Source: Pseudomonadota bacterium (GTDB lineage: Bacteria; Desulfobacterota; Desulfovibrionia; Desulfovibrionales; Desulfovibrionaceae). From it: DNA of 64,000 nucleotides. Where the stretch lies: contig JAHIUW010000007.1 of the NCBI GenBank assembly GCA_018816865.1, positions 62,001 through 126,000 on the forward strand. The letters run 5' to 3'. Both the position numbers and the translations under genes were made by a program. Shown piece by piece: positions 34,059 to 49,800 of this stretch. Every line of letters begins with the position of its first letter. Positions within the stretch are counted from its first letter, which is position 1. Below the pieces are notes generated by a model. The model was not told the DNA's origin, searched no databases, and saw only the letters and a program-made list of their open reading frames with translations.

Positions 34059-35814
34059 GGAAGTCCAACAGATTAAAACACTCATTGCCGAAGGAAAAAA
34101 GAAGGGATTTTTGACCTTTGACGAGGTCAACAAGGCCCTGCCTTCGGACATCAACAAGCCGGAGCAGGTCGAAGAGATTATCGACATCTTCGACCAGTTG
34201 AATATTGCCATCGTGGATACCGAGCAGGACGGCAAGAAGCTCGAATTTGTCAGTGACGATGCAGCAGGTGATGGCGACGGCGAAGAGCTGAAGCTGGCGG
34301 AAACCGATGATTCACCGGATTACGCCTCCCGAAGCACGGACCCCGTGCGCATGTACCTGCGCGAGATGGGTGCTGTGTCGCTCCTGGATCGCGAGGGCGA
34401 GGTGGTCATCGCCAAGAAGATCGAGAACGGTGAGCTGGATGTGCTCTACGCCTTGGTCGAGGTCCCCGTGGCCATCGAGGAACTGGCCCGCGTGGGCAAG
34501 GACCTCAAGGACGGCAACGTCAAGTTGAAAGACGTGGTCAAGACCATTGAAGAGGATGATCCCAGCGAAGACGAGATGAACCAGCGTGAGCGGGTGATCC
34601 ATCTGCTGGAAGAAATCCGCCAGATCTATCGCAAGAAGCAGAAAATCTACGGCAAGCTCGACAACTGCGCCACCTTGGAGCGTCGTGTCTACGGCCAGCA
34701 GAAAGAGATTCTGGTCTTCAAGGAAGAGATCGTCCAGCGCCTGCGCGACATCAAACTGGAAAAGACCCTCATCGATTCGATCATCGAGACGGTGGGCGAC
34801 TATGTGCGTCAGATGCACAACTGCCAGCGCGACCTCTCCGCCTATCTCCTGTCCACGGGCAAAGGCCAGGTCGAGATCAAGGACCTGTTCGACAAGCTGG
34901 ACTCGCGGGCCATGAACCCCAGGGCGGTTGCCGAAGAACTGGGCATGACCGTGGAGGAAATTTTCTCCTTCAAGGAAATGATTTCCGGGAAGATGGAAAT
35001 CCTGGTCCGGCTCCAGGAAAAATGCTGTCACCCCGTGCAGGATCTGGAAGAGGTCCTGTGGCGCATCCGTCGCGCCAACTGGGCCTCCAGCCGCGCCAAG
35101 CAGGAACTGATTCGGGCCAACCTGCGTCTGGTCGTGTCCATTGCCAAGAAATACACCAACCGCGGCTTGCAGTTCCTGGACCTGATCCAGGAAGGCAATA
35201 TCGGCTTGATGAAGGCCGTGGACAAGTTCGAGTACCAGCGCGGTTACAAGTTTTCGACCTACGCCACGTGGTGGATTCGTCAGGCCATTACCCGCGCCAT
35301 CGCGGACCAGGCGCGGACCATCCGTATCCCGGTGCATATGATCGAGACCATCAACAAGCTCATCAGGACCTCGCGCTATCTGGTGCAGGAACTGGGGCGT
35401 GACCCCACGCCGGAAGAGATCGCCGAGCGGATGGACTACCCGCTGGACAAGGTCAAGAAAGTCCTGAAGATCGCCAAGGAGCCCATCTCCCTGGAAACCC
35501 CCATCGGCGACGAGGAAGATTCGAGCCTGGGCGATTTCATCGAGGACAAGAAGGCCACGGCACCTTCCGAGGAAGTGGTCAACACCAAGCTTGGCGAGCA
35601 GATCGCCACGGTCTTGTCCGACCTGACTCCCCGCGAGGAACAGGTCCTGCGTAAGCGCTTCGGCATCGGTGAGAAGAGCGACCACACCCTGGAAGAGGTG
35701 GGCAAGCTGTTCAACGTCACCCGCGAGCGAATCCGCCAGATCGAGGCCAAGGCCCTGCGCAAGCTGCGCCATCCCGTGCGCAGTCAGTTGCTGCGGTCAT
35801 ACTACGAGAACTAA
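34045..35814 (+). CDS. rpoD: Primary sigma factor RpoD (sigma 70)
   Basis: Main promoter-recognition subunit of RNA polymerase. The 589-residue protein has region 1.1 (about residues 1-80), region 1.2 with [14 protein letters not shown], a non-conserved insertion, region 2 with [22 protein letters not shown], region 2.4 [14 protein letters not shown], region 3 and region 4.2 [37 protein letters not shown] lies before the ATG within the end of dnaG. A terminator follows. Confidence 0.97.
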
Positions 35815-35835
35815 CTCTCTTTGCATGCAATGAAT

Positions 35836-35870
35836 AACCCCCGTCCGGACTTCCCGGGCGGGGGTTTTTT
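35836..35870 (+). terminator. Terminator after rpoD
   Basis: AACCCCCGTCCGG and CCGGGCGGGGGTT pair around a 5-base loop, followed by TTTTTT. It ends the rpsU-rpoD block. Confidence 0.92.
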
Positions 35871-35892
35871 GCTGCTGGGGTCCAGGGGAGGG

Positions 35893-36675
35893 TTAGTTGT
35901 ATTTGTCCAGAATCATTTGGATGCTGCCGTCCTGCTGCATGCGCTTGATCTCGGCGTCAAAGAGCTTGATGAAGGGTTTCCAGTCCTGCTGTCTGGTGAA
36001 CATCAGGCGATAGCCCACGGTCTCTACTGCCGGTGAGGCGATGTAAAAATCCTTGGCCGTGTATTCCTTGGAATGGGCCATCAGCCATTGGGCGGTGAAG
36101 TCATCAATGACGGCCCCGTCCACCCGCCCCATGTGCGTCAGGAAGAGCTGTTTCTGGGCGTTGTGGACATCCACGCGCTGGATGAGTCCCTGCAAGAAAG
36201 CCTGTTCCAGGGGAGGGTAGCTGAAGCCGAGGATGGCTGCGATACTCATGTCCTGCATGGCTTGGATCGAGGGGGTCCTGATGGGGGTCCTGGTGCTGGA
36301 GACGATGATGGTGCTGGGTTCGAGGAATGGTTCGGTCCAGTCGTACTGCTCGGGATGTTGAACCCATTCCCTGGCCTTGCCGCGCGCATCCACCTCGCCA
36401 CGTTCCAGGAGTTCCTGGCCGCGTTTCTCGGGATGCAGGGTGATGGTCAGCTCAAAATCGATGCGCTTCAAGGCCTGCTGGAGGATTTCCACGGTGATGC
36501 CGGTGATGCGGTCATCCTCTTCGATCAGGTAGGGTGGATAGCCGTCTTCATTGTAGCTCAGGACCAATCTACCGTCGGCAGGGCCGGCCGGGGCTGGTCC
36601 GGAGTACAAAACAAAAATAACGGCCACGATTACCGCCAGTATTGCCCTCATCGACGCAAGTGGGTAGTGCTTCAT
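35893..36675 (-). CDS. Periplasmic solute-binding protein (amino-acid type, family 3)
   Basis: A 260-residue exported protein: a signal peptide of about 30 residues (ending GPAPAGPA), then an SBP_bac_3-like fold with LVLSYNEDGYPPYLIEEDDRITGITVEI, a class pattern of amino-acid-binding and related sensor proteins. The C-terminal RMQQDGSIQMILDKY is typical of the fold. No permease or ATPase gene is adjacent, so it may not serve a transporter; orphan members occur often in sulfate reducers. AAAGG precedes the ATG. It is convergent with rpoD. Confidence 0.82.
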   Translation of the reverse strand: MKHYPLASMRAILAVIVAVIFVLYSGPAPAGPADGRLVLSYNEDGYPPYLIEEDDRITGITVEILQQALKRIDFELTITLHPEKRGQELLERGEVDARGKAREWVQHPEQYDWTEPFLEPSTIIVSSTRTPIRTPSIQAMQDMSIAAILGFSYPPLEQAFLQGLIQRVDVHNAQKQLFLTHMGRVDGAVIDDFTAQWLMAHSKEYTAKDFYIASPAVETVGYRLMFTRQQDWKPFIKLFDAEIKRMQQDGSIQMILDKYN

Positions 36676-36757
36676 GGTTGCCTTTGCCCGGATGTTTGGG
36701 GCACCAGAAAACTAGCAGACAACGCAAATGTGGGACAACCATTTTTTAAAGGTCGAT

Positions 36758-37525
36758 GTGGAAATGATGCTGTCAGGGAACCGTTTGTCGCGACGAAGCC
36801 TTGCGGCGATGTTCTTTGTGCTGGCTTCTCTGTTGACGTCTGTGTTGGGACTGTCGGCAGGTGCGGAAGAATCCCTTCTCCAACGGGCGAAGTGGATCCC
36901 TGATGGCGATACGATTCTGCTTGAGTCGGGCCAATGGGTTCGGCTTCAGGGTATCGATGCGCCCGAAACCGGACACGACAATCAGCCCGGCCAGTATTAC
37001 GCCACTGAATCCGCTTCGACTTTGCGCGGCATGGTCACGGGAAAGCCACTGACCGTGGTCAGTCACGGCAAGGATCGGCATGGTCGGACCCTGGGTACCT
37101 GCCTGCTTGCCGATGGCACGGATGTGGCCGAGACCATGGTGCTGGAGGGCTGCGCGTTTTATTATCCCCACCCGGATCATGGTCAGGACCTGCATACTCG
37201 CCTGCTGGCGGCACAGCGCTGGGCCATGCGTCAGGGTAAAGGGTTTTGGCCGAGGATCCAGGCCCTTTCCGCCAAGCAGGGGCAGTGGGTGGGCAACCGC
37301 AGGTCCGGCAGGGCGTTCCCGCAGGATTCGCCAGATGCGCAGAGAATCAATGCTGTCAACCGCGTGGTCCTGATCAGCCTGTGGGACGTTTTCCTGCAGG
37401 GTTACAGTCCTGCCCGGGGAGCATCCCCCTGGCCCCTTGATGACCAGCGGTCAAGCCTTTCTTCGCAACCTGCGGATTCTCCTCGGAATCCCCATGAGGC
37501 TATCTTGCTGCGTGCGCAACTATGA
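36758..37525 (+). CDS. Secreted staphylococcal-nuclease-like protein
   Basis: The 255-residue product has an N-terminal hydrophobic signal (LAAMFFVLASLLTSVLGLSAGA) and an SNase domain (about residues 45-155). The residues equivalent to SNase catalytic Arg35, Glu43 and Arg87 are present in VRLQGIDAPET and DRHGRTLG, so it may be an active Ca-dependent nuclease in the periplasm or outside. The C-terminal 80 residues are unfamiliar. The start is uncertain: GTG at 36758 has AAAGG five bases upstream; ATG at 36764 is the alternative. Confidence 0.78.
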   Translation: MEMMLSGNRLSRRSLAAMFFVLASLLTSVLGLSAGAEESLLQRAKWIPDGDTILLESGQWVRLQGIDAPETGHDNQPGQYYATESASTLRGMVTGKPLTVVSHGKDRHGRTLGTCLLADGTDVAETMVLEGCAFYYPHPDHGQDLHTRLLAAQRWAMRQGKGFWPRIQALSAKQGQWVGNRRSGRAFPQDSPDAQRINAVNRVVLISLWDVFLQGYSPARGASPWPLDDQRSSLSSQPADSPRNPHEAILLRAQL

Positions 37526-37672
37526 GCTGGGAGTTGGCGTCAAATCACGCTTTTCAGACAATGCCACAGCTTTCTGGGCGTTGACTCCGTAGGTTGAATA
37601 ATCTACCTTGCGTGGACTTTTCTAGACCTATGAATTCCACTTGAATTTTCAACAATCAGGACGCTGACTATT

Positions 37673-39730
37673 ATGGAAACTCTACGCACGCTGCCCGGTG
37701 ATGACGTCCGTCAGATTCTGTGGCGCTATGCTGATCGCTTTGATCTGCAGATGGCCGTCCAGTCGGCCAGGGGCATTGCCCGTGGTATTGTGGCCAGACT
37801 TGTGGCCGATGGTGAACGCAACTCGCATGAGTGGACCGAGGGCAAGGCCGAGCTGCTGAAGGCCTTTGACGAATCCGGTCTGACCTCAATCTATATGGAT
37901 CCCTGCCAGGGCGGCTTCATCGAAGGTCCCAAGAATCTGGCCTTGTCCCTGGTGGCTTTGGAATTGGCCTGGGTGGACGCTGGTGCTGCCACCAGTTCCC
38001 TGGCCAGCTGCCTGGGCCTGGCCCCTATCCACGAGAAGGGCACTGACGATCAGCGCAATACCTATCTGGGCATGTGCTGCCCGCCTCAGCCTGGAGAGGA
38101 CCGCGTGATCAAGCGCGCGGCCTTTGCCTTGACTGAGCCGTTGCCCTACGTGGGTGTGGACACCGGTGTGCTGGGCGGCAAGATCCGCGTGGAGTCCTGG
38201 ACCGACGGGCAGGAGCCCATGCTCAAGGTGGAGAAGCGCGGTCGTTTCATCACCAATATGGACTTTGCCGACATCGTGACCGCCGCCGTGGAATCCGACG
38301 ACGAGCGCATCAAGGGCACCTGCATGGTCATCCTGGAGAACGGTGATCCCGGCATGTTCGACCGTGGCGCTCCGACCTTGAAGCTGGTGCACCAGCTGTC
38401 TTCCACTCGTGACCCCGTGATGAATCTCACCGTGCCCGCTTCGCGCATCATCGGTGGCTACACGGTCAAGGACGGGGTGATCATCCCCAAGTACAATCAC
38501 AGCGAGATCATCGCCTCCGTGTTCCACCGCACCCGCATCCCCGTGGGGCTTATGACCTCGGCCAAGCTCTTGTCCGCCATCGAGCCGGTGATCCGCTATC
38601 ACCGCCAGCGTTTCAGGGGTGGGAATGCCGAGCAGGGCAGTCCGCGTTTCGACCTGGGCTTGCAGCAGAAGGAAGATGCCCTGCATCGTCTGATCGACGT
38701 CTGGGCCGCCGGCGAGGCCGGTTGTTCCCTGGGCTTCGCTGCGGCGCGCCTGGCCGACGAATTCGATCCCATTGAGCGCGCCAAGGACATCTTGTTCGAG
38801 GAGCAGGGTCTTTCCGGGCGCAAGGGCCTGATGGCCCTGCGCACGAAGCAGGCCGAGGTGGAGGAATACATCGCCTTGAAATTTGCCCCCGAGGGCCAAG
38901 GCGACCCCAAGCGTCTGGCCGAGCTGGAATCCGACAACCTGGTCCTGTTCGCCTACATGGATGGCCTGGCGGGCGTGCTCAATCCGGGCACCAAGCTTTG
39001 GAACACCGGCGTTGGTTCGTCCATGATGCGCGAGGCCGTGGCCCTGGTGGGTGGTTACGGCATCACCGAGGACTGCCCGGGCTTCTTGTGCCAGAAGTGG
39101 ATGGACACCCAGTTGGAGGCTACCTACGAAGGGCCCGAGGCCGTGCAGCGCCGCCACCTGAGCCTGACCATGAGCAATCCGGTCTTCTTGGCGACCTTCA
39201 GGCAATGGATCGCTGAATTGCGGCGCATCCATGCCGCAGATTCCGGCGTAGGTGCCAATGTACTGGCTGCGGCCATGGAGCAGTGGCTGTGGACCCTGGA
39301 GTTCCTGCAAGGCGCCAAGGACCCCGACGGCCGCAAGCTCTATCACGGTCAACGCCAGGGTGTGACTTTCCCCCTGGCCGATGCCCTGGGTTGGCTGATC
39401 TCCTCCCGCTATCTGCTCAAGGACGTCCTGGTGCTTAAGGAACAGGCCCCGCAAAGCCCGTTGCTGGCCGATGGCGTGGAAGGGCTGACCAGCTTCTATG
39501 GCGACATGAGTTTTGTGCAGGCCGCCCGCGCCGCGGGCGAGTCCGCCCGGATTTGCGCCGAACTGGTGTTCGGGTACGGCAATGATGCCGGGTTCGAGGG
39601 CCAGGACGAGTTCGGCAGATTGCGCCTGGGTGTGGACATCAGCCTGGCCGGGGTGCGTCTGGCCAAGGACCGCGCGGCCAACGCCCTGACCGGCGTGATG
39701 ATCCCCGAGGCCCTTGATTATCCCATGTAA
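37673..39730 (+). CDS. Large acyl-CoA dehydrogenase-like protein
   Basis: FAD enzyme of 685 residues, much longer than the usual 380-residue acyl-CoA dehydrogenases. The FAD/substrate motif near residue 150 reads FALTEPLPYVGVD, where G-S-D is normal, and the second signature GGYGITEDCP is clear. The catalytic Glu of short/medium-chain enzymes is present as Glu486 in TYEGPEAVQRR. Residues from about 510 form a C-terminal helical extension as in very-long-chain or ACAD9-type enzymes. First gene of a four-gene module with FixC-, EtfB- and EtfA-like genes, so it should pass electrons to the flavoprotein. The substrate is unknown; no thiolase, hydratase or CoA ligase is near. Confidence 0.82.
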   Translation: METLRTLPGDDVRQILWRYADRFDLQMAVQSARGIARGIVARLVADGERNSHEWTEGKAELLKAFDESGLTSIYMDPCQGGFIEGPKNLALSLVALELAWVDAGAATSSLASCLGLAPIHEKGTDDQRNTYLGMCCPPQPGEDRVIKRAAFALTEPLPYVGVDTGVLGGKIRVESWTDGQEPMLKVEKRGRFITNMDFADIVTAAVESDDERIKGTCMVILENGDPGMFDRGAPTLKLVHQLSSTRDPVMNLTVPASRIIGGYTVKDGVIIPKYNHSEIIASVFHRTRIPVGLMTSAKLLSAIEPVIRYHRQRFRGGNAEQGSPRFDLGLQQKEDALHRLIDVWAAGEAGCSLGFAAARLADEFDPIERAKDILFEEQGLSGRKGLMALRTKQAEVEEYIALKFAPEGQGDPKRLAELESDNLVLFAYMDGLAGVLNPGTKLWNTGVGSSMMREAVALVGGYGITEDCPGFLCQKWMDTQLEATYEGPEAVQRRHLSLTMSNPVFLATFRQWIAELRRIHAADSGVGANVLAAAMEQWLWTLEFLQGAKDPDGRKLYHGQRQGVTFPLADALGWLISSRYLLKDVLVLKEQAPQSPLLADGVEGLTSFYGDMSFVQAARAAGESARICAELVFGYGNDAGFEGQDEFGRLRLGVDISLAGVRLAKDRAANALTGVMIPEALDYPM

Positions 39731-39735
39731 TGCAT

Positions 39736-39764
39736 CGGGCCGCCTCCTTTTTGGGGGCGGCCCG
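39736..39764 (+). terminator. Intra-module hairpin
   Basis: Perfect 9-base arms (CGGGCCGCC and GGCGGCCCG) with an 11-base loop between the dehydrogenase and the FixC-like gene. No T run follows, so full termination is unlikely; it may set relative expression. Confidence 0.5.
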
Positions 39765-39796
39765 TCCTCCACTCTTTCCTCGAAAAGCGAGACCCC

Positions 39797-41662
39797 ATGA
39801 GCGAGAATCAGACCCCAGAGCTTCCCCGCCAGAGCATGGAAGCGGACATCGTCTGCGTGGGCTTCGGCCCGGCCGTGGCGGGTTTCCTGACGACCCTGTC
39901 CCGAGGCCTGATGAACGAGGACGGTACGCCCGTGGCCGATTCCAAGGCCATGCCCGGGATGCCGCCCCAGGTCATCTGCTACGAACGTGCGGATGACATC
40001 GGCTTTGGCGTGTCCGGCGTGGTCACCAAGGGACGTGGCATCCGAGCCTCGTTCCCGGACCTGGATCTGTCGCAGATCCCCCTGGCCAGCGAGGTCACCG
40101 GGGAGAAGGTCGTCTACCTGCTGGACCCCCATGGTGCCAGCCGTAAGAGCGGCGTTCTGAAACTGGGCGAAAAGCTGATGCGCCTCTTGCCGCTGTGTGA
40201 CAAGTCCCTGCAGGCCTGCGAGCTGCCCTGGATCCCGCCGTTCCTGAAAAAGGAGCCCGGCATGGTGCTGTCCATGGGGCAGTTCTGCCAGTGGGCGGGT
40301 TATCAGGTCATGGGCTCGGGTCTGGCCCAGATCTGGCCGGGTACCCCCGTGGCCGAGCCGCTGTTCGAGGCCGGCCGGATGACGGGTGTGCGCCTGGCGG
40401 ACCAGGGCGTGAACAAGAAGGGCGAGCCCGAGGCGGGCTTCATGCCCGGCATGGACATCAAGGCGGCCCTGACCGTCCTTGGCGACGGCCCCGTCGGCCC
40501 TGTGAGCCAGGCCGTGGATCGCGAAAAGGGCCTGCCCCCGGGTCGGCACCAGCGCGACTACGCCGTGGGCATGAAGATGGTGGTCCAGTTGCCCGAGGGC
40601 TGCGATCTGAAACCCGGCACCGTGTTGCATACTCTGGGCTTCCCCGAGCCCGAGATTTTCGGTTTCATGTATGTCTATCCGGACATGTCGGCCTCACTTG
40701 GCATCTTCGTGCCTTCGTGGTTCGACAATCCGCTGCGCACCGCCTATCGCTATCTGCAGCATTGGATGATGCATCCCTACCTCTGGCGCTGGCTGGAGGG
40801 CGGCACTCTGCGTTCCTGGGGCGCCAAGACCCTGGGCGAGTCCGGCAAGCATGGCGAGCCCTTCCTGGCCGGGGACGGCTACGCGCGCATCGGCGAATGC
40901 TCCGGCTCCACCAACGTGCTCACTGGTTCGGGCGTTGACGAAGCCTGGACCACGGGTGTGCTGCTTGGCGAATCCGTGCTGGATCTGCTGCGCGAAGGCA
41001 GCGAGTTCAGCCGTGAGGACCTGGATCGGACCTACGTGGCCAGACGTCGTGCCTCCTGGCTGGAGTCCGAGGCCCTGGTGGCGGAGAAGTCCCGCGATGG
41101 GTTTCAGAGCAGCGTGGTCCAGGGCCTGATCGGCATGGCGCTGAGCGGATTGTCCGGCGGCAAGCTGAACCTGGGCGGGGCCATCAAGCGTCCCCACGAG
41201 CGCATTCCGAGCATCGAGGAGTATTACAAGGGCCGGATCAGCCCGACCGAGATCGCCGAGATCCGCGCGTCCTGCCAGGCCAAAGGCCAAGGGCTGCATG
41301 ACGCGGTCATGGATCGCCTGGGCTGGCCCGAGATCCCCCTGGACGGCCAACTGCTCATCTCGCACCAGGACGCGCTGCTCATGGGCGGCAAGGTCCAGGC
41401 CAATGCGGGCTACGCGGACCACGTGGTCTTCAAGGACCCGGCCGTGTGCGAGGCCTGCTTTGAGAAGATCTGCATTGAGGCCTGCTCCGGTCAGGCCATC
41501 GCCATGAACCCCGAGGGTGGCGTGCCCCTGTTCGATCGCGAAAAATGCGTGCATTGCGGGGCCTGCCTGTGGAACTGCTCCAAGGCCGACCCCAAGGACC
41601 CGGAGGCGACCAACGTCGCGTTCAGCGCCGGTTCCGGCGGTTTGCATTCGGCTGAAAACTAG
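39797..41662 (+). CDS. FixC/ETF-QO-like flavoprotein with FixX-like ferredoxin tail
   Basis: The 621-residue protein has an N-terminal FAD site (VGFGPAVAG, a variant of GxGPAG) near 17-25 and a geranylgeranyl-reductase/FixC-like body. The C-terminal ferredoxin-like tail has Cys551, 554, 559 and 563 in the FixX pattern, then Cys584, 587, 590 and 594 (CVHCGACLWNC). Eight cysteines could hold two [4Fe-4S] clusters, whereas classical ETF:quinone oxidoreductase holds one. It would take electrons from the EtfBA pair encoded next and pass them to menaquinone or another acceptor. No signal peptide. Which family branch it joins (ETF-QO or FixCX) is inference. Confidence 0.78.
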   Translation: MSENQTPELPRQSMEADIVCVGFGPAVAGFLTTLSRGLMNEDGTPVADSKAMPGMPPQVICYERADDIGFGVSGVVTKGRGIRASFPDLDLSQIPLASEVTGEKVVYLLDPHGASRKSGVLKLGEKLMRLLPLCDKSLQACELPWIPPFLKKEPGMVLSMGQFCQWAGYQVMGSGLAQIWPGTPVAEPLFEAGRMTGVRLADQGVNKKGEPEAGFMPGMDIKAALTVLGDGPVGPVSQAVDREKGLPPGRHQRDYAVGMKMVVQLPEGCDLKPGTVLHTLGFPEPEIFGFMYVYPDMSASLGIFVPSWFDNPLRTAYRYLQHWMMHPYLWRWLEGGTLRSWGAKTLGESGKHGEPFLAGDGYARIGECSGSTNVLTGSGVDEAWTTGVLLGESVLDLLREGSEFSREDLDRTYVARRRASWLESEALVAEKSRDGFQSSVVQGLIGMALSGLSGGKLNLGGAIKRPHERIPSIEEYYKGRISPTEIAEIRASCQAKGQGLHDAVMDRLGWPEIPLDGQLLISHQDALLMGGKVQANAGYADHVVFKDPAVCEACFEKICIEACSGQAIAMNPEGGVPLFDREKCVHCGACLWNCSKADPKDPEATNVAFSAGSGGLHSAEN

Positions 41663-41723
41663 ACATTTGAAGGCCTGTGGCGGCTGGTCCGCCGGTCCAT
41701 CACTGCGAAGATAAGGAGATTCT

Positions 41724-42527
41724 ATGAGCTACCATATCCTGGTCTGCGGGAGCATTGTCCCGGACCCGCTCCAGACCCTGGAACCCATGGACGGCCCGCA
41801 GGGACCGACCCTGAAGAACGAGATGATGCTGCCTGCCGTGCTCGACCCCTGGGCCGGACACGCCTTGTACGAGGCGGCCAATCTGGCCAAGAACGTGCCG
41901 GATTCCAAGGTCTGGCTGGTGAGCATCGGTCCCAAGGCCAAGTTGCAGCAGGTGATGATGAACATCGCCCAGAAGGTTCCCTTTGAGCTGGTGGTCCTGG
42001 ACGGTCCGGCCAGCGGCTTTGTCGAGGCCGCTGACGTCGCTGCCTCCCTGAAAACAGCCATTGATGGTATCGCCGGGCTGGACAAGGGCAAGATGTTGCT
42101 GTTCGGCGGCTGGCAGTCGGCCTCGCGCGGCACCGGTGCCGTGATGCAGATCCTGGGCGAGCTGTTGGGTGTGACCGAGCAGTTCCAGGGCGTGGACGAA
42201 TTTACTCCCGCAGCCGACGGCTCCTTCGAGGTCATCGAGCGCATCGAGGGTGGCAGCTACCTGCACAGCAAGTGTGCCGGTGCTCCGGCCGCGCTGGGCT
42301 GGGCCACGGGCAATCTGCCCGAGCCGCCCAACAACCCTCAGGTGGGCATGCAGAACATGCGTTTTGTGATGCCCGCATTGCAGCGGGCCCAGCCTGCCGC
42401 TGTGGGTGCCGAGGGCGTGACCTTCAAGAGCGTTGAGTTGCCCAAGGTGCGTCGTCAGACGCGCATCGTCAAGGATACTCCGGTCGAGGACATCGCCCGT
42501 GAGATCGTCGACTGGATCAAGAGCTAA
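41724..42527 (+). CDS. etfB: Divergent electron transfer flavoprotein beta subunit (EtfB/FixA-like)
   Basis: Partner of the following alpha subunit in a heterodimeric flavoprotein. The 267-residue product has an ETF-beta Rossmann-like layout (HILVCGSIVPDP; DPWAGHALYEAANLA; VWLVSIGPKA), matching the usual VKQVPD, NPYDE.A and VGP positions. The nucleotide-binding region differs: LLFGGWQSASRGTGAVMQILGELLG replaces the common GxxxxDGDTGQVG pattern, and the lNePRyp segment is not recognisable. AAGGAG precedes the ATG. Eleven bases separate it from etfA. Confidence 0.8.
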   Translation: MSYHILVCGSIVPDPLQTLEPMDGPQGPTLKNEMMLPAVLDPWAGHALYEAANLAKNVPDSKVWLVSIGPKAKLQQVMMNIAQKVPFELVVLDGPASGFVEAADVAASLKTAIDGIAGLDKGKMLLFGGWQSASRGTGAVMQILGELLGVTEQFQGVDEFTPAADGSFEVIERIEGGSYLHSKCAGAPAALGWATGNLPEPPNNPQVGMQNMRFVMPALQRAQPAAVGAEGVTFKSVELPKVRRQTRIVKDTPVEDIAREIVDWIKS

Positions 42528-42538
42528 GGGAGACCGAC

Positions 42539-43558
42539 ATGGATACGATTCTCTATCTTGCGCATACCGAGGCCGACGGCTCCCTGTCCAAGACCGCCAA
42601 GGAGGCCCTGTCTGCCGTGAAGGCCCTGGCCCAGGGATTAGGCGGCGGCTTTGCTGTCGGCTTGGTGGGCCGGAGCGTCCAGGCAGCCGCCGATTCCATC
42701 GCTGGATGTGGGGCCACGGGCTTCTTTGCCGTTCAGGGTGCCGATTATGACGTGTCGCGTTACGCCACTGATACCGCGGCCTGCACGGCCATCTGCAAAC
42801 AGGCCGCAGCCACCCTTGTGGTCGCTCCGGCCACGGCGCGTTTCTCGCGCTGCCTGCCAGGTGTCGCCGCACGCCTTGGCGGCCGTGTGGATACCCAATG
42901 CACCGGACTGGTCGTGGAGGGCGGCGAGATTGTGATCAACCGCTGGTACTATCGCCAGCGCATGGAGAGCCTCCAGACCCGCACCCAGCGGCCCTGGGTG
43001 ATCAGCGTGGCTCCCTGTTGTTTTCTGCCCGAAGAGGGCTGCGCGGGCAGTGCGGCCCTGACCGAGGTGGCCGTCCAGGTCGTGACCCGCACCGAGGTCG
43101 TGGGCGTCGAGGCCCCGTCCGCGGACGAGCAGACCATCCGCCCCGAGGCCGAGGTGTTGTTCGTGGCCGGAGCCGGCTGGACCAAGAAACAGGCCGACGG
43201 CACCACGCATATGAAGGAAGCCGAGCAGCATATTTTGGGTTTCCTGGATGGCACCAAGGCCTCTCTGGGGTCCTCCAAGTCCCTGGTGGACCTGTCGGGC
43301 GAGGGCGAGGACGTACTCTCTTTCATGACCCATCTGCACCAGGTGGGGCAGACCGGGGCCACCCCGCGCCACAAGAAAGGACTGGCCACCTGCTGTCACG
43401 GCGAGGAGCCGCATGTGGTGGGCTGGCGCTTCATTGCCGAGCGTCGCGCCGTGAACCTGGACGCGGGCTGCGGCTGGGCTCAGGGCAAGGCCGACGTGCT
43501 CTACGTGGCCGACGCCTTCGCGGTCATGACCAAGGTCAACGAGCTGCTGGGCAAGTAG
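42539..43558 (+). CDS. etfA: Divergent electron transfer flavoprotein alpha subunit (EtfA/FixB-like)
   Basis: FAD-carrying subunit, 339 residues. The C-terminal FAD domain keeps HQVGQTG (VGQTG at 269-273), but the usual GISGAIQH loop is replaced by a CCHGEEPHVVGW stretch and the IN.D..ApIF segment is only loosely similar (RRAVNLDAGCGWAQGKADVLYVADAFAV in outline). It may bind flavin differently or use other partners. There is no added ferredoxin domain. Located directly after etfB with AAGGGAG before the ATG. ETF identity is secure from the pairing; function is inference. Confidence 0.78.
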   Translation: MDTILYLAHTEADGSLSKTAKEALSAVKALAQGLGGGFAVGLVGRSVQAAADSIAGCGATGFFAVQGADYDVSRYATDTAACTAICKQAAATLVVAPATARFSRCLPGVAARLGGRVDTQCTGLVVEGGEIVINRWYYRQRMESLQTRTQRPWVISVAPCCFLPEEGCAGSAALTEVAVQVVTRTEVVGVEAPSADEQTIRPEAEVLFVAGAGWTKKQADGTTHMKEAEQHILGFLDGTKASLGSSKSLVDLSGEGEDVLSFMTHLHQVGQTGATPRHKKGLATCCHGEEPHVVGWRFIAERRAVNLDAGCGWAQGKADVLYVADAFAVMTKVNELLGK

Positions 43559-43583
43559 CCCGAACCAAGAGGTTGATTTTCGA

Positions 43584-43611
43584 GGCCCCGGTGGCATACG
43601 CTGCCGGGGCC
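43584..43611 (+). terminator. Hairpin after etfA
   Basis: Perfect 8-base arms (GGCCCCGG and CCGGGGCC) with a 12-base loop; no T run. A probable weak end to the flavoprotein module. Confidence 0.5.
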
Positions 43612-43651
43612 CCGTCAGTCTAGTCAGTGCAGTCATTGAAAAGGAGCACCC

Positions 43652-44338
43652 ATGGTCTTTCCTCTGGGTTCAGTGGTCAACGTGGCCGCCATCGTGGCGG
43701 GTGGGCTTATCGGTCTGGTGGCCGGCGGGCGTCTGCCCGAGCGGGTGCGCGCCATCGTCTTTACGGGGCTTGGGCTATGCGTGCTGGTCATCGGCATGCA
43801 GATGGCCCTGGTCACGAAAAATCCGCTGATCATGGTCTTCAGCGTGGTTCTGGGCTGCATCACGGGCGAGTTCCTGCGCCTGGAGGACCGGCTGACGGGC
43901 CTGGGCGACTGGCTCAAGGCCCGTTCCGGCTCCTCGGATGCGCGCTTCACCGATGGTTTCGTCACGGCCTCGGTGTTGTTCTGCATCGGGTCTATGGCCA
44001 TTCTCGGCTCGTTTGACGAGGGCCTGCGCGGTGACCACACCATCCTCTTCACCAAGTCCATCCTGGACGGGTTCGCCTCCGTGGCCTTTGCCGCCGCCCT
44101 GGGTGTGGGCGTCATTTTTTCCTGCATCCCGGTGTTCCTGTATCAGGCCGGGTTGACGGAACTGGCCACTGTGCTCCAGCCGTGGCTCTCCGAGGCCATG
44201 ATGACCGAACTCACGGCCACGGGGGGCGTGCTGATTCTTGGAATAGGTCTCAGCTTGTTGGAGCTTCGCCGCATCCCCTTGACCAACCTCTTGCCCGCTC
44301 TGTTCTTTGCGCCTCTTTTGGCTTGGATGGTGGGCTGA
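43652..44338 (+). CDS. DUF554 membrane protein
   Basis: A 228-residue polytopic inner-membrane protein with six or seven hydrophobic segments. The DUF554 pattern is visible: GSVVNVAAIVAGGLIGLVAG at the start, SVVLGCITGEFLRLEDRL, and CIGSMAILGSFDEGLRGDHTIL. The function of the family is not established; transport is assumed. GGAG precedes the ATG. A terminator follows closely, so it is either alone or last in the flavoprotein transcript. Confidence 0.85.
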   Translation: MVFPLGSVVNVAAIVAGGLIGLVAGGRLPERVRAIVFTGLGLCVLVIGMQMALVTKNPLIMVFSVVLGCITGEFLRLEDRLTGLGDWLKARSGSSDARFTDGFVTASVLFCIGSMAILGSFDEGLRGDHTILFTKSILDGFASVAFAAALGVGVIFSCIPVFLYQAGLTELATVLQPWLSEAMMTELTATGGVLILGIGLSLLELRRIPLTNLLPALFFAPLLAWMVG

Positions 44339-44381
44339 GGACGCGGCTCACTGAAATCAACTCGCTGGAATTACTCAGATA

Positions 44382-44415
44382 AAAGGCCGCCCCGTGTCTC
44401 GGGGGCGGCCTTTTT
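44382..44415. terminator. Terminator between convergent genes
   Basis: AAAGGCCGCCCC and GGGGCGGCCTTTTT around a short loop; the flanking A and T runs suit both the DUF554 gene and the convergent hydrolase gene. Confidence 0.88.
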
Positions 44416-44431
44416 GCGCAGTTGTCGATGC

Positions 44432-45775
44432 TCAATTCTTGTCGTTCAGACCCTTGAATTCGAAGACCTGCTTGGATTGGTACCGTCTGATGGTCATCTC
44501 GGTCAGCAGCGTGCGGTTGGCCCGGAACACGTCCTTGATTTGGTTCGCCTGGATCTTGATGCTGCCCAGGTCGCCGGGCACGAAGGTGCGATAGCCTACG
44601 TTGCCTTCTTTGGTGATTTCGGGCGAGGCATAGAGGCGGATGTCCACGTGGTCCTCCGGTTTGTCGATACGATCATGCAACTGAGTGCAATCCATGAAGA
44701 TACTACGATAGCTCTTGTCCTCCTCGTAAGGATGAACTTTGCAGAGGACCTCGCGGTGGAACTGCTCGGCAAAGCGGTTGGAGTCCGTGTCATGCTCATA
44801 GAATTGCAGGAAATAGTCGGGCACGGCGCGGTGGTATTGATCCCGCAGGCGGAACACGGTGTTCTGGAATCCGTGCTTGCTGTCGTCGTCCAGGTAGCGG
44901 GCCATCACACTGTCGGTGAGCACAGCCAACCGCGTCGTAAAGCCCTCGAACCGGTCGTCGTTGACGGTCAGGGCATCCTTGATCCAAAGAAAGGTGCTGT
45001 CATTGTTGAAGCGCTCGTCTTCCCCGATGATGCTGCCGTGATTTTCCCCGTCCATGACGCCAAACCCCGTTTGGCAGGTGCAGGGCCTGAGCTGCCATTG
45101 GGGCTGCTCGGGGTTCTCTGCGTAGTTCAGGATGAGGTTTGCAGTCTGGAGATTGGCGGTGGAGACGTACACCGTGCCGTCGCTGCCGTCGCGGTTGGCG
45201 ATGCTCCTGAATCCCGAGTATCCCGTGTTGCCCACCAGCACGGTGCACAGGATCTTCCCGGCCTCGAATTTCGTCTTTTCGGCGAAGAGATCGCGCAGGG
45301 CGAGGCTTGTACTGTAGGGGCTGGCCAGTTCCAGGCCCTTGAGGATGCGCTCCCCGGTTTGGAAGGGTTTGTCGCTTTTGAGGCCCTTGAACAGTCGCCC
45401 CAGAAAGGAATGCCCCTGGTGGGCCAGGGGGGAGCCGAAGTTGGCAGGGGCCAACATCAGCAGATGGTGGATCGGGCACTGGCCCGGAGCAAAATGGGTG
45501 TCCAGCCAGTCACGGACAACGAGACCACCGGTGCTGTGCACCACCATGTTCGTCGAGCGGGGCGTCATGGGCAGTTGTTTGTCCTTCCAGGCGCGCATCA
45601 TGGCCTCCACGATGTCGTGGAATTCCACATGATCGTCCATGGTGACGTAGTTGCCCAGGTGGATATCCGTGACCTGCTCGGCGATTCCTGCATCCTTCAG
45701 GAGTGTCCCAAGTGGTTTGAAGGACTCGAAGCTGTCGCTCCAGCCGTGCAGTATGACAAGTGGGAGGTTCGGCAT
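44432..45775 (-). CDS. Alpha/beta hydrolase (lipase-like) with novel C-terminal domain
   Basis: The 447-residue cytoplasmic protein has an oxyanion-hole motif LHGWSDS at 9-15 and a nucleophile elbow VVHSTGG with Ser81 (His in place of the first Gly). Asp199 in DGSDGTV and His246 in ENHGS would complete the triad, a lipase or acyltransferase-like spacing. Residues about 255-447 have no recognised domain; predicted strands (VDIRLYAS, GYRTFVPGDLGSIKIQ) suggest a beta-sandwich that could bind membrane or partner. No signal peptide. AAGGAGGGG precedes the ATG. The small membrane protein gene lies 111 bases upstream in the same direction, so the two may act together on lipid. Confidence 0.75.
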   Translation of the reverse strand: MPNLPLVILHGWSDSFESFKPLGTLLKDAGIAEQVTDIHLGNYVTMDDHVEFHDIVEAMMRAWKDKQLPMTPRSTNMVVHSTGGLVVRDWLDTHFAPGQCPIHHLLMLAPANFGSPLAHQGHSFLGRLFKGLKSDKPFQTGERILKGLELASPYSTSLALRDLFAEKTKFEAGKILCTVLVGNTGYSGFRSIANRDGSDGTVYVSTANLQTANLILNYAENPEQPQWQLRPCTCQTGFGVMDGENHGSIIGEDERFNNDSTFLWIKDALTVNDDRFEGFTTRLAVLTDSVMARYLDDDSKHGFQNTVFRLRDQYHRAVPDYFLQFYEHDTDSNRFAEQFHREVLCKVHPYEEDKSYRSIFMDCTQLHDRIDKPEDHVDIRLYASPEITKEGNVGYRTFVPGDLGSIKIQANQIKDVFRANRTLLTEMTIRRYQSKQVFEFKGLNDKN

Positions 45776-45886
45776 CTGCCCCTCCTTGTGCCTCCCTCTG
45801 GAGGGCTAACGGGATACGAGCCTGTTTGCGCCTTGCCGGATCAAGTGCCATGAGGACTCGTTTCTGGGTGCGCCAGGGCGCGGCCT

Positions 45887-46399
45887 TTACTGGTCCGTGG
45901 TGGTCTTTTGGGAGTACTGGAGGGAGAGCAGGCTCATCTTGTCCGAACTGCCTTTGGAGGAACCCAGCCAGAAGTTGACCACCTGTGTGAATCCGGCGGT
46001 CATGGTGCCCACCAGGAGGTACACAAGTTCCTTGTTGCTCCCGAGATCCAGGTTCACGGTGGTTGAGAGGATGATCAAGGTCAGGATGAGGAAGAAGCCG
46101 GAAGTGATGATGATGGAGAGGATGACAGGGGCCTTGCCCATGGACGTGTTCTGCAGGACCTTCATCAGGTTTCGGGCGTTTTGGGTCTGGTCGTCGGGGG
46201 CGCAGCCGTTGAGCAGGGTGAAGAACTCTGTACGCAGTTCAGGGTCTGTCTGGATTTTTTGGAGAATCTGGTCGGGTTGGTCCTGTGTGAGTTGCGTAAC
46301 CATGCATGCGTAACGGACGAGTTTCTGCTGCGTGATAATCCTGGCAGCGGGTTCGCCGTGTGCATCCGTCAGCGTCAACAGGCTTTCATAGAGGCCCAT
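45887..46399 (-). CDS. Small two-helix membrane protein with GSS-GS-K tail motif
   Basis: The 170-residue product has a soluble helical N-terminal half (about residues 1-88), then two hydrophobic segments (PVILSIIITSGFFLILTLII and ELVYLLVGTMTAGFTQVVNF, about residues 93-145) and a tail with FWLGSSKGSSDKMSLL. The tail motif resembles the end of small holin-like or phage-associated membrane proteins. The ATG at 46399 has GAGGGG at good spacing; an earlier in-frame ATG at 46438 lacks a site. It probably anchors, activates or restrains the downstream hydrolase. Family not recognised with certainty. Confidence 0.6.
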   Translation of the reverse strand: MGLYESLLTLTDAHGEPAARIITQQKLVRYACMVTQLTQDQPDQILQKIQTDPELRTEFFTLLNGCAPDDQTQNARNLMKVLQNTSMGKAPVILSIIITSGFFLILTLIILSTTVNLDLGSNKELVYLLVGTMTAGFTQVVNFWLGSSKGSSDKMSLLSLQYSQKTTTDQ

Positions 46400-46873
46400 G
46401 GCTGATCCCCTCGGGGCAGAGTGAATACCATTGCTCATGGCTCAATGCCATGAGCGTATATACCACAACCAATATACTGAAGGGAAGTGGATAAGAAAAA
46501 ATAGCTTGAAGCTGCACGCGATTCAATCGTGCAAGCCAGTGCCGTCATCCCGCAGCGCTACGCAACCTACGCATAATTATCTATATTTGTTGTGTATATA
46601 CAATTTTGACATCATGATGCTTCCAAAAATGGGAAAAATGTAGCTTCTGTTTGACGGCACGTTTTGAAGGGCGTAATTAATGTTCGGACACGATGACAAT
46701 CACTATTCGTCGTGGACGCTTTGACATGGTATTGTGGACTGGCCGAACGACTCTCGGCTGGTGCCCGCCCCAGGCATATCCACCAGGCGAAAGACCGCTG
46801 CGGTGGATTTTCACGTCTTCAGGGGCTTGGGATTTATTGAACAAACTACGACCATTGAAGGACAGTGACAGCT
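46400..46873. other. 474-base AT-rich spacer between the hydrolase pair and gltB
   Basis: Distinctly lower in GC than everything around it. It contains an inverted pair GTGCCGTCA (46539-46547) and TGACGGCAC (46652-46660), a bulged hairpin around 46503-46535 (GCTTG...GCACG with CGTGCAAGC), and TTGACA hexamers at 46606 and 46721 without good -10 partners. No coding frame with a ribosome site is present. It should hold the divergent promoters of the membrane-protein gene and gltB. It may mark the edge of an acquired segment. Confidence 0.45.
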
Positions 46874-49800
46874 ATGACCCGCCAGCTCATCGCCCAGGAA
46901 AAGGACGCCTGCGCCATCATCGCCTACGTGGACAAGCGAGGCCACGCCACCCACGCCAACATCGTCAAGACCATCGAGGCCCTGAAGAAGATGGCCCACC
47001 GTTCCGGCGACATCAACGATGAGGGCGACGGCTGCGGCATCCTGACCGATATCCCGCGTGAGATCTGGGGCCAGCGCCTGGAAAAGGTTGGGCTGTCGCG
47101 GCACCTGGCCGAGTCTGCCGGGTTCTTCGTGGGGCATTTCCTACTGCCCCGCAGCATCCGTGAGCGTTCGGATGAGATCCTGGGCATGATCCGCGAGACC
47201 TTCGCCAAGAACGCCGTGGAACTGTTGACCGAACTCACGGGCCAGACCAGGGACGATGAGCTCGGACCCATGGCCCGGGCGGAGGCCCCCCTGTTCTGGC
47301 AGGTGGCGGGTCTGGCACCCGTGGAGGACAGCAAGAAGACCGTGGAAAAGCGGTTGTTTCACATCCAGATGCAGCTGGAGCGTGTGGAAAAGGACCTGCA
47401 CATCGCCTCGCTTTCGCGCGACAGCGTCGTCTATAAGGTCCGCGGCCTGGCGGACCTTTTGCCCCGCGTGTATCCGGAATTGCGCCTGGAGGAGGCCCGT
47501 TCGCGCATGACCGTGGGCCATAGTCGGTATTCCACCAACACCCTGCCCACGGTGGAGCGCTCCCAACCCTTTTCCATCCTGGCGCACAACGGCGAGATCA
47601 ATACCATCGAGCGCTTGCGCAGCTCGGGCCGCCTGCTGGATATCGAGCCCGTGCCCGGGGGCTCCGACTCCCAGGACCTGAATCGCATCCTGGAAGGCCT
47701 GATCAACCTCCATGGCTTTGATCCGCTGGAGGCCTTTGCCATGGTCTTCCCGGCCGTGCATTCCGAGGTGGAGCAGTACCCCGCGCCTCTGCAAAAGGCC
47801 TACGCCTTCTTCCGCTGGTTCTTCCAGCCCTCGGCCCAAGGCCCGGCCGCGGTCATCGCCCGTCAGGGGCAGGTCTGCATGGGCAGCGTGGACGCCCTGG
47901 GGCTGCGCCCCCTGTGGTTTGGCGAAAGCGACTACGACTATTATCTGTCATCGGAAAAGGGTGTGGTGGACATCGAGGATACGGTGTCCGACCCCAAACC
48001 CCTGGCTCCGGGTGAGAAGATCGCCATCCTCTCGGTGCCTGGCCGCAGGGCGGTGGTCTTCGACTACACGGCCTTCCAGAAGCGCGTGGCCGACCTGATG
48101 GCCGAGCGGGGCAAGGCCCTGGATTGCGTGGAGGCCCTGTATACGGCGATTCCCGCGCAGCAGGGCGAAAAGCGTCGCCTGGAATCATTCCTGCCCGCGG
48201 CCTTGCGCGTGTCCACGGCCAGGCTCACCGAGCCCGCCTATCTGGCCGCCTTCGGCTGGCAGAAATACGATGTCGACATCCGCAAGCAGACCGCCACCAT
48301 CGGGGGAGCCGTCATCGGTTCCATGGGCTACCAGGGTCCGTTGGCCTGCCTGAACGACGGGCTGCCCAACATCTCCGAGTACTTCAAGGAAAACGTGGCC
48401 GTGGTTACCAACCCGGCCATCGATCGCGAACGTGAGGCCGACCACTTCACCACGCGTTCCATTCTGGGCAACCGGCCCACTGCCGACGGCGAGGGACATC
48501 CCGTGGCCGTGGGCCTGGAGCTCAGGACCCCACTGCTGCTCGGCGGCTGTCTGGACGCCGAGGTCTGCGGCAGTGCCTTGTCCAAGTTGGCTCGGGCCTT
48601 CGGCACCCAGACCATCGACGATGTCCTCAATTTCTTCACGGCCCAGGGGCGCGACACCTCCCGCGTGGCCATTCTGGACGCCACCTTCGAGCCCGGTAAA
48701 GGTCGGCTCAAGAAGCGCCTGATTGCTCTGGCCGAAGAGGGAGTCAAGGCCGTGGCGGCAGGGGCCGTGCTGGTGGTGCTGGATGATTCGCGCAGCTTCT
48801 CGGACGGCCGCTGCTACCTCGATCCCGGCCTGGCCGTGGCCTGGGTGGAGAGGGAATTCGCCGTGCGTCGCATCCGGCGCAAGTGCTCGCTGGTGGTGCG
48901 TTCCGCGGCCATTCGCAACCTGCACGACGTGATGTTCCTGCTGGGGCTGGGAGCCGACGCCCTGAACCCCTACATGATCTGGCGCATGGCACGCGAGCAT
49001 TCCACGGAATCCCGACCCGCCGAGCAGGTCATCCGCACCACCATGGACGTTTTGCAAAAGGGCATTGAAAAGGTCATGTCCACCATGGGCATCCACGAGC
49101 TGTGCGGCTACGGGCGCATCTTTGCCTCCATCGGGCTGGCCGACGATCTGGTCGAGGTCTTCGGCTGTGCCAATTTCTGTCAGTCGCACAAGAACGGACT
49201 CTCCCTGGCCGCGTTGGAAGAGCGTGCCGCGAGACGTGTGGAACAGGCCTCTCAGGGCAAGGAAGCCAAGCTCTGGCGCGATCCGGCTCGGAACACCAAG
49301 GTCGGGCGCATCCTGCGTCGCACCGCCACGGGCGAGGCCGGATTCCGCGAAATGGCCGAGGGCCTGCGCGAGTTGGAACGCGAAAACCCCGTGGCCCTGC
49401 GGCACCTGCTGGGTTTTAACAAGCCGGCTGGAGCCACGCCCCTGGCCATGAGCGACGTGGACCTGTCCATTGGTCGTCACGACATGCCGCTGCTCATCCC
49501 GGCCATGAGCTTTGGTTCCCAGGGGGAGAACTCCTTCCGCACCTACGCCGAGGCCGCCAAGCAGTGCAACATCATCTGCATGAACGGCGAGGGCGGCGAG
49601 ATCCCGGACATGCTGGGCAAGTACCGCCACAACCGGGGCCAGCAGATCGCCTCGGGCCGCTTTGGCGTGTTCATGGAATTCCTGAATTCCGTGGATTTCC
49701 TGGAGATCAAGGTGGGGCAGGGCGCTAAGCCCGGCGAAGGTGGCCACCTACCCGGCCAGAAGGTGACCGAGATGGTGGGGGCGTCGCGCCACTGCAAGCC

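What the first reader, a model, noticed from the sequence alone, without database searches (positions are those of the whole stretch)
37673..43558. Four-gene flavoprotein module: giant acyl-CoA dehydrogenase, FixC-FixX fusion and very divergent EtfB/EtfA
The four genes are contiguous and same-strand. The ACAD is 685 residues with catalytic Glu486 kept. The FixC-like protein ends in eight cysteines in FixX-like order. EtfA keeps VGQTG but has lost the GISGAIQH loop, and EtfB lacks the usual DGDTG region. No beta-oxidation gene is near. FixABCX-type complexes split electrons from NADH between ferredoxin and quinone; a dehydrogenase-linked variant in a sulfate reducer could run a new oxidation or bifurcation.
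Basis: partly seen in the sequence, partly recalled or inferred. Interest (0 to 1): 0.7.

Follow-up and report, generated by a model that had tools for sequence, protein, structure and literature searches.

The report
Quinone-linked fatty-acyl flavoprotein module
Four neighbouring genes that travel together across many bacterial phyla encode a fatty-acyl dehydrogenase wired to the membrane quinone pool; the pattern of which genomes carry them suggests they do the last reduction step of fatty-acid synthesis, replacing the usual enzyme FabI.

Summary
The four genes (ACAD, ETF-QO-like protein, EtfB, EtfA) are contiguous on one strand and are the only ACAD and only ETF pair found in their genome. 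ACAD and EtfB co-occur in 63 of 199 class genomes, with one genome holding each alone. A public-genome scan found 427 EtfB relatives; the best 80 span at least ten phyla by title, 47 with all four genes in one locus.

FixABCX-type NADH bifurcation gained no support. Two results point to fatty-acid synthesis. In the window's family, all 26 genomes without detectable FabI carry the module, and all 105 without the module have FabI. Of the fatty-acid-synthesis genes tested, only enoyl-ACP reductases recur beside the module, in 15 of 133 loci.

I propose a quinol-driven enoyl-ACP reductase: menaquinol, ETF-QO, ETF, ACAD, trans-2-enoyl-ACP. This is inference from genomes; no activity is shown. FabV and FabMG were not properly excluded in the FabI-less genomes, a FabX homologue is present there, three FabI-less genomes outside the family lack the module, and few FabI-state changes are independent.

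The parts
37673..39730 (+). Giant acyl-CoA dehydrogenase-family protein (685 aa) with a long C-terminal extension; proposed enoyl-ACP reductase subunit
   Evidence: Pfam PF02771 and PF00441 above cut-off; only PF00441 match in the genome; best PDB match 1buc 1.2e-8
39128..39130 (+). Codon of catalytic Glu486 (ATYEGPEAVQRR)
   Evidence: E in 79 of 79 aligned relatives
39797..41662 (+). ETF-quinone-oxidoreductase-like protein (621 aa) with ubiquinone-binding domain
   Evidence: PF21162 1.8e-10 above cut-off; PDB 2gmh ETF-QO 5.9e-28
41447..41578 (+). Eight-cysteine C-terminal stretch (CX2CX4CX3C ... CX2CX2CX3C), read as a two-[4Fe-4S] ferredoxin-like domain
   Evidence: All eight Cys in 80 of 80 aligned relatives; weak matches to dicluster subunits
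41724..42527 (+). EtfB (267 aa), very divergent
   Evidence: PF01012 27.2 bits against cut-off 26.7; no PDB match at E 0.01; isolated clade
42539..43558 (+). EtfA (339 aa), very divergent
   Evidence: PF01012 3.1e-17; PDB profile match 5ol2 2.4e-18; fold matches ETF alpha subunits
43340..43432 (+). EtfA residues 268-298: kept VGQTG and the CCHGEEPHVVGWRF stretch in place of the GISG..QH FAD loop
   Evidence: Alignment with FixB/YdiR; invariant residues in 98 sequences

Best explanation
The module is a membrane-quinol-driven enoyl-ACP reductase of type II fatty-acid synthesis. Shown: four co-inherited genes for an ACAD with its catalytic Glu, an ETF-QO-like protein, and EtfB/EtfA; loss of FabI only in module-bearing genomes within the window's family; enoyl-ACP reductase genes as recurrent neighbours. 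Inferred: menaquinol reduces the ETF-QO-like protein at the membrane, electrons pass over its clusters and FAD to the ETF, and the ETF reduces the ACAD FAD, which with Glu486 adds hydride and proton to trans-2-enoyl-ACP to give acyl-ACP. So the chain runs opposite to beta-oxidation and does FabI's job without NAD(P)H. Whether the carrier is ACP or CoA is not known.
For: (1) FabI (E<=1e-40) is found in 170 of 199 class genomes; 26 of the 29 without it carry the module (24 with both ACAD and EtfB found, G158 and G174 with one of the two in fragmented assemblies). Within the window's family: 26 module+/FabI-, 39 module+/FabI+, 0 module-/FabI-, 105 module-/FabI+ (Fisher 3e-13, not corrected for relatedness). 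(2) Of eleven query proteins for fatty-acid-synthesis genes against 133 fetched loci, only enoyl-ACP reductases recur: 15 loci, plus L132 doubtful; PlsX 0, ACP 0, FabX 0, FabH 1, FabF 1, FabG-like SDR 4. They are FabMG in 6 Geobacter-group loci, PRK06300-type in 4 Gemmatimonadota loci, FabI in 2 Acidobacteria loci and 2 loci of genus g19, and a weak FabL-like SDR in 1 Omnitrophota locus. Nine lie on the module's strand, 13-446 bp away; the six FabMG genes lie on the other strand, 98-2261 bp away. (3) The genome has plsX-fabH-fabG-acpP-fabF but only three PF13561 SDRs, none an enoyl reductase; in seven FabI-less genomes 22 of 23 SDRs examined (of 24 found) are nearest FabG and one, weakly, a FabL-like reference; the control FabI was recognised. 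(4) ACAD and ETF are the only ones in the genome. (5) When unlinked the genes still co-occur: 20 of 21 genomes. (6) Precedent: menaquinol-type electrons reach an ACAD through ETF in enoyl-CoA respiration (PMC8805022, abstract and passages).
Against: No biochemistry or mutant data. Few FabI-state changes are independent: 4 by parsimony on a tree of 39 of the 65 module-bearing genomes plus two outgroups. Three FabI-less genomes outside the family (G127, G176, G135) lack the module. Other reductases are not fully excluded: FabMG was not searched in the FabI-less genomes; the FabV search gave 0 of 29 but its control was silent. A FabX homologue, of the FabK superfamily, is in all 29. 39 module-bearing genomes of the family also keep FabI, so there the module is not needed for this step or does something else. 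In FabI-less G093 the ACAD and EtfA reading frames look broken, perhaps assembly errors. Enoyl-reductase neighbours would also fit an enzyme working in the opposite direction. One L113 neighbour is classed as FabL-like only below the curated cut-off. All 80 public loci are MAGs.
Confidence: 0.57

Rival explanations
1. Oxidative direction: the ACAD dehydrogenates acyl-ACP or acyl-CoA to the 2-enoyl thioester and feeds electrons to quinone, for example to make unsaturated fatty acids or remodel acyl chains, so it would be the opposite partner of the neighbouring enoyl reductases.
For: ACAD/ETF/ETF-QO normally run this way; enoyl reductases are neighbours; FabA is over its cut-off in 0 of 199 class genomes.
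Against: A FabX homologue is in 190 of 199 class genomes and already offers the FabA-less route to unsaturated acids; the oxidative reading does not explain why FabI is absent only where the module is present in the family; with menaquinone (recalled potentials, about -75 mV against about -10 mV for enoyl/acyl thioesters) this direction is uphill.
Confidence: 0.15
2. FabI was replaced by another reductase (the FabX homologue or an undetected FabMG, FabV or new enzyme), and the module does an unrelated lipid reaction that correlates with FabI loss by shared ancestry.
For: FabX homologue in all 29 FabI-less genomes; FabMG not searched there and FabV search uncontrolled; few independent FabI changes. 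In D. vulgaris Hildenborough the authors name essential DVU2064 as a possible promiscuous enoyl-ACP reductase (PMC10102598, passages).
Against: [quoted passage not shown] 26 of 26 within the family and enoyl-reductase neighbours in other phyla are not explained.
Confidence: 0.15
3. An ordinary catabolic acyl-CoA dehydrogenase system (short-chain or branched acyl-CoA oxidation, or an enoyl-CoA respiration) without link to fatty-acid synthesis.
For: Family membership of all four proteins; weak best matches to acryloyl-CoA reductase subunits.
Against: No other ACAD or ETF in the genome; no recurrent catabolic neighbour among 1015 neighbouring ORFs; enoyl-reductase neighbours. Thiolase and enoyl-CoA hydratase were not searched genome-wide.
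Confidence: 0.08
4. One reading: a FixABCX-like complex that bifurcates electrons from NADH to ferredoxin and quinone, with a dehydrogenase attached.
For: ETF plus quinone oxidoreductase with eight cluster cysteines, which could include a low-potential cluster.
Against: Closer to ETF-QO than FixC; ETFs not grouping with FixA/FixB; no NADH site shown; presence of an ACAD, which FixABCX does not need (recalled).
Confidence: 0.05

Closest known systems
ACAD - ETF - ETF-QO chain of beta-oxidation
   Same: Same three kinds of protein: ACAD with catalytic Glu, ETF, and ETF-QO with ubiquinone-binding domain
   Different: Isolated EtfA/EtfB, altered FAD loop, eight cluster cysteines, 685-aa ACAD, fixed four-gene set, no other ACAD in the genome; proposed to run in reverse
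Enoyl-CoA respiration of Syntrophus (EMO - ETF - ACAD)
   Same: Electrons from a menaquinone-type quinol pass through ETF to an ACAD that reduces an enoyl thioester (PMC8805022, abstract and passages)
   Different: Catabolic, on enoyl-CoA, and uses the heme protein EMO; here an ETF-QO-like protein and a proposed biosynthetic role
Enoyl-ACP reductases FabI, FabL, FabV, FabMG, FabK
   Same: Proposed same reaction; genomic replacement of FabI; FabI, FabMG and PRK06300-type genes beside the module
   Different: No sequence relation; the known enzymes are SDR-type or FabK-type and use NAD(P)H (PMC9260719, sections 7 and 9 and passages)
FabX of Helicobacter pylori
   Same: Flavin and [4Fe-4S] enzyme acting on acyl-ACP outside the NAD(P)H chemistry (PMC8626469, passages)
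   Different: One FMN protein of the FabK fold working as dehydrogenase/isomerase; a homologue is present separately in this genome
FixABCX
   Same: ETF pair with a quinone oxidoreductase and ferredoxin-like cysteines
   Different: No ACAD in FixABCX; FixC/FixX separate in E. coli; only 25% identity over 226 aa to FixC, and no significant BLAST match (best E above 0.1) to FixA, FixB or FixX

Membership tests
Acyl-CoA dehydrogenase family | N- and C-terminal ACAD domains | tested here: met
   PF02771 37.6 and PF00441 31.4 bits, both over cut-off
Acyl-CoA dehydrogenase family | Catalytic glutamate | tested here: met
   E486 in 79 of 79; aligned to 1buc
ETF (EtfA/EtfB) | ETF domain PF01012 | tested here: met
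   63.4 and 27.2 bits against cut-off 26.7; EtfA model matches ETF alpha chains, best Foldseek E 4.1e-15, though residues 269-321 are modelled below pLDDT 50
ETF (EtfA/EtfB) | Alpha-subunit FAD-binding domain with GISG..QH loop (PF00766) | tested here: not met
   No PF00766 match; loop is CCHGEEPH
ETF-QO | Ubiquinone-binding domain | tested here: met
   PF21162 41.7 bits against 27.7
ETF-QO | Single C-terminal [4Fe-4S] cluster with four Cys (recalled) | tested here: not met
   Eight invariant Cys, 80 of 80
FixABCX | EtfA/EtfB grouping with FixA/FixB | tested here: not met
   Module sequences form their own clade apart from FixA/FixB and YdiQ/YdiR, support 0.87 and 0.67
FixABCX | NADH-driven electron bifurcation | not testable with these tools
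   Needs purified protein
Enoyl-ACP reductase (functional class) | Reduction of trans-2-enoyl-ACP | not testable with these tools
   Only genomic association:
Enoyl-ACP reductase (functional class) | Can stand in for FabI | tested here: inconclusive
   26 of 26 FabI-less family genomes carry the module, but FabMG and FabV are not excluded there and 3 of 29 FabI-less class genomes lack it
SDR or FabK-type enoyl-ACP reductase | SDR or FabK fold | tested here: not met
   Pfam gives only ACAD, ETF and ETF-QO/ferredoxin domains for the four proteins

The most novel reading that the evidence does not exclude
A new class of enoyl-ACP reductase that does not use NAD(P)H: an ACAD fed by menaquinol through a dedicated ETF and a two-cluster ETF-QO, so that the respiratory chain directly powers the last step of fatty-acid elongation. 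It would be spread by descent and transfer over at least ten phyla, and would be the only enoyl reductase in some sulfate reducers.
Probability: 0.5. Interest if true: 0.92.

Novelty: new variant of a known kind. Interest (0 to 1): 0.78.

Why it matters
If true, membrane quinol, not NAD(P)H, pays for fatty-acid saturation in these bacteria. That would tie lipid synthesis to respiration, explain how FabI-less genomes live, and predict resistance to FabI inhibitors such as triclosan. It would also give a function to a gene set found over many poorly cultured phyla. Even if the direction is wrong, a conserved ACAD-ETF-quinone module beside enoyl-ACP reductases is an undescribed link between fatty-acid synthesis and the quinone pool, as far as my ten literature searches show.

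Tried and rejected
FabA anti-correlation as a test of an unsaturated-fatty-acid role: no use, because FabA is over cut-off in 0 of 199 class genomes (weaker matches in 195, presumably FabZ). FabK: 0 of 29 over the cut-off; the weaker match is the FabX homologue (7E1Q is FabX by PMC8626469). FabV by PF12241: 0 of 29, but the control rang nowhere, so it shows nothing. Plasmids: no EtfA match; ETF-QO matches under 60% identity only. Conserved non-enzyme features: no tRNA in 30000-52000 and no Rfam family in 34000-47000. A role given by gene neighbours other than enoyl reductases: phosphate transporter, acetolactate decarboxylase and others recur only in Omnitrophota. PD-(D/E)XK proteins between genes in a few loci were set aside as likely unrelated. 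ACAD structure: job failed, see below. Names of the window's genome and its relatives were not available; 'sulfate reducer' and the family name Desulfovibrionaceae are inference.
Full report
Observation. The four ORFs are present at the stated places, same strand, with gaps of 66, 61 and 11 bp. Domain searches identify an acyl-CoA dehydrogenase, an ETF-QO-like protein and two ETF subunits. The catalytic glutamate is conserved in 79 of 79, and the eight C-terminal cysteines of the second protein in 80 of 80 aligned relatives. EtfA has an invariant CCHGEEPH stretch where E. coli FixB and YdiR have GISGQIQH, with C285, C286 and C311 conserved in 98 of 98. The genome has one PF00441 match and one ETF pair.

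How isolated. A profile of EtfB in 395 genomes of the phylum gives one group at 480 bits or more, which is the window's family plus one Geobacter-type genome (G347), and then nothing above 49 bits. In trees with 26 EtfB and 22 EtfA comparison sequences (E. coli FixA/FixB and YdiQ/YdiR and ordinary ETFs of the same phylum) the module sequences are one clade on a long stem, with support of only 0.87 and 0.67. No characterised beta-oxidation ETF was in those trees. EtfB has no PDB match at E 0.01; EtfA matches ETF alpha subunits by profile and by fold, although residues 269-321, the most conserved part, are modelled with pLDDT under 50.

Co-inheritance. EtfB is in 64 and the ACAD (E below 1e-270) in 64 of 199 class genomes, 63 of them the same; the two odd ones are fragmented assemblies. 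In 20 fetched neighbourhoods all four genes stand in the same order in 16; two are cut by contig ends; two, of one genus, have the ACAD elsewhere in the genome. A scan of 84,980 species genomes found 427 EtfB relatives, of which the best 80 were kept. All 80 are MAGs; by title they belong to Geobacter and related Deltaproteobacteria, Omnitrophota, Gemmatimonadota, Verrucomicrobia with Kiritimatiellae and Lentisphaerae, Acidobacteria, Methylomirabilota, Myxococcota, Bdellovibrionota, Sumerlaeota, Hydrogenedentota and Fimbriimonadaceae, plus one Gammaproteobacterium. All four genes lie in one locus in 47 of 80, QO-EtfB-EtfA in 12, EtfB-EtfA in 21, always on one strand. In 21 of the loci without ACAD I searched the rest of the genome: 20 of 21 have the ACAD elsewhere, mostly next to the QO gene (15 of 20 loci examined). 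The phyla on the list are mostly menaquinone users (recalled).

Neighbours. Among 1015 ORFs near the module in the loci examined, the two most recurrent families were an SDR group (10 loci) and FabMG (7 loci, two of them the same genome). A targeted count over 133 loci found enoyl-ACP reductases beside the module in 15, with one more doubtful (L132). Other fatty-acid-synthesis genes hardly occur: PlsX 0, ACP 0, FabX 0, FabH 1, FabF 1, FabG-like SDR 4. The 15 are FabMG (6, Geobacter group, opposite strand), PRK06300-type (4, Gemmatimonadota), FabI (2 Acidobacteria, 2 of genus g19 in the window's family) and a weak FabL-like SDR (1, Omnitrophota); nine of them are on the module's strand within 13-446 bp. 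By coordinates, three further g19 genomes (G080, G081, G139) have FabI about 1.7-1.8 kb from EtfB on the same strand. Related loci are not independent; I count about five lineages. Two members of the SDR group (L129, L149) are nearer FabG and are not counted. The curated NCBIfam cut-off is passed by L145; L163 and the control FabI of G153 fall below theirs, and L113 far below.

FabI replacement. FabI at E<=1e-40 is found in 170 of 199 class genomes. Of the 29 without it, 26 carry the module. In the window's family the table is 26 module without FabI, 39 module with FabI, 0 neither, 105 FabI only; Fisher's test gives 3e-13 but ignores relatedness. On an EtfA+EtfB tree of 39 module-bearing genomes FabI presence changes at least four times, with the root state unclear. 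Three FabI-less genomes of other families (G127, G176, G135) have no module. FabK is over its cut-off in 0 of 29. A FabX homologue is in 190 of 199, including all 29, so it does not track FabI loss. In seven FabI-less genomes 23 of 24 SDRs were examined: 22 are nearest to FabG, one weakly to a FabL-like reference; none looks like FabI, while the control FabI of G153 does. The window's genome has plsX, fabH, fabG, acpP and fabF in one cluster, so it needs an enoyl reductase. FabMG was not searched there, and the FabV search had no working control.

Mechanism. I read the module as a quinol-driven enoyl-ACP reductase: quinol to the ETF-QO-like protein, to ETF, to ACAD, to trans-2-enoyl-ACP. The first three links follow from protein families; the direction and the ACP substrate are inferred. 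[quoted passage not shown] The potentials that favour menaquinol to enoyl thioester are recalled. The review of enoyl-ACP reductases that I consulted (PMC9260719, outline, sections 7 and 9, and a term search) lists SDR and FabK types and holds no mention of quinone, ETF or acyl-CoA dehydrogenase. My ten literature searches found no paper on such a reductase (listings seen, with passages read in four papers, one of them also in two sections); the library holds open-licence papers only.

Against it. There is no activity or mutant evidence. FabI and module coexist in 39 genomes of the family. The enoyl-reductase neighbours would fit an enzyme of the opposite direction as well. G093, FabI-less, has ACAD and EtfA in two frames each; the FabX match there also shows a stop, so assembly errors are likely but not shown. 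In D. vulgaris Hildenborough an essential gene, DVU2064, is named as a possible promiscuous enoyl-ACP reductase (PMC10102598, passages); I could not tell what it is or whether that strain carries the module. The ACAD structure could not be predicted.

Verdict. The mechanism is proposed with moderate confidence; it is an unusual use of a known kind of electron chain, and, if shown, a new class of enoyl-ACP reductase.

Noticed in passing
L171:2605-10136, L220:13438-18001 (also partial pieces in L221, L222, L223): In Verrucomicrobia subdivision 3 MAGs the space between the QO gene and EtfB holds several partial copies of the QO 3' end (35-129 nt) and, in L171, of the EtfB 5' start (53-87 nt), scattered among unrelated ORFs, as if the junction had been duplicated repeatedly.
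   Followed up: partly
L120:14777-18469; also L125, L134, L160: Omnitrophota loci carry a second QO gene (26-28% identical to the window's) downstream of the module, in L120 followed by a fused EtfB-EtfA protein (655 aa, two ETF domains plus the ETF_alpha FAD domain).
   Followed up: no
L238:4986-6128 (own genome): A FabX homologue (best PDB match the 7E1Q FabX group, 253 bits) is nearly universal in the class (190 of 199), while FabA is over its cut-off in none; unsaturated fatty acids in this class are probably made by FabX, in anaerobes where oxygen cannot be the electron acceptor.
   Followed up: partly
window 42539-43558: EtfA has three invariant cysteines (C285, C286, C311) and histidines in the rebuilt FAD loop region (98 of 98), a possible metal or extra redox site.
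   Followed up: no
G093 (loci L028): ACAD and EtfA each match in two frames and the FabX match holds a stop in this FabI-less genome; likely indel errors of the assembly, not checked.
   Followed up: no
L142:8923-9342, L146:3817-4203, L171:256-747, L220:11149-11556, L221:10322-10813: A small PD-(D/E)XK (GxxExxY) protein lies next to or between module genes in five loci (L171 and L221 are the same contig).
   Followed up: no
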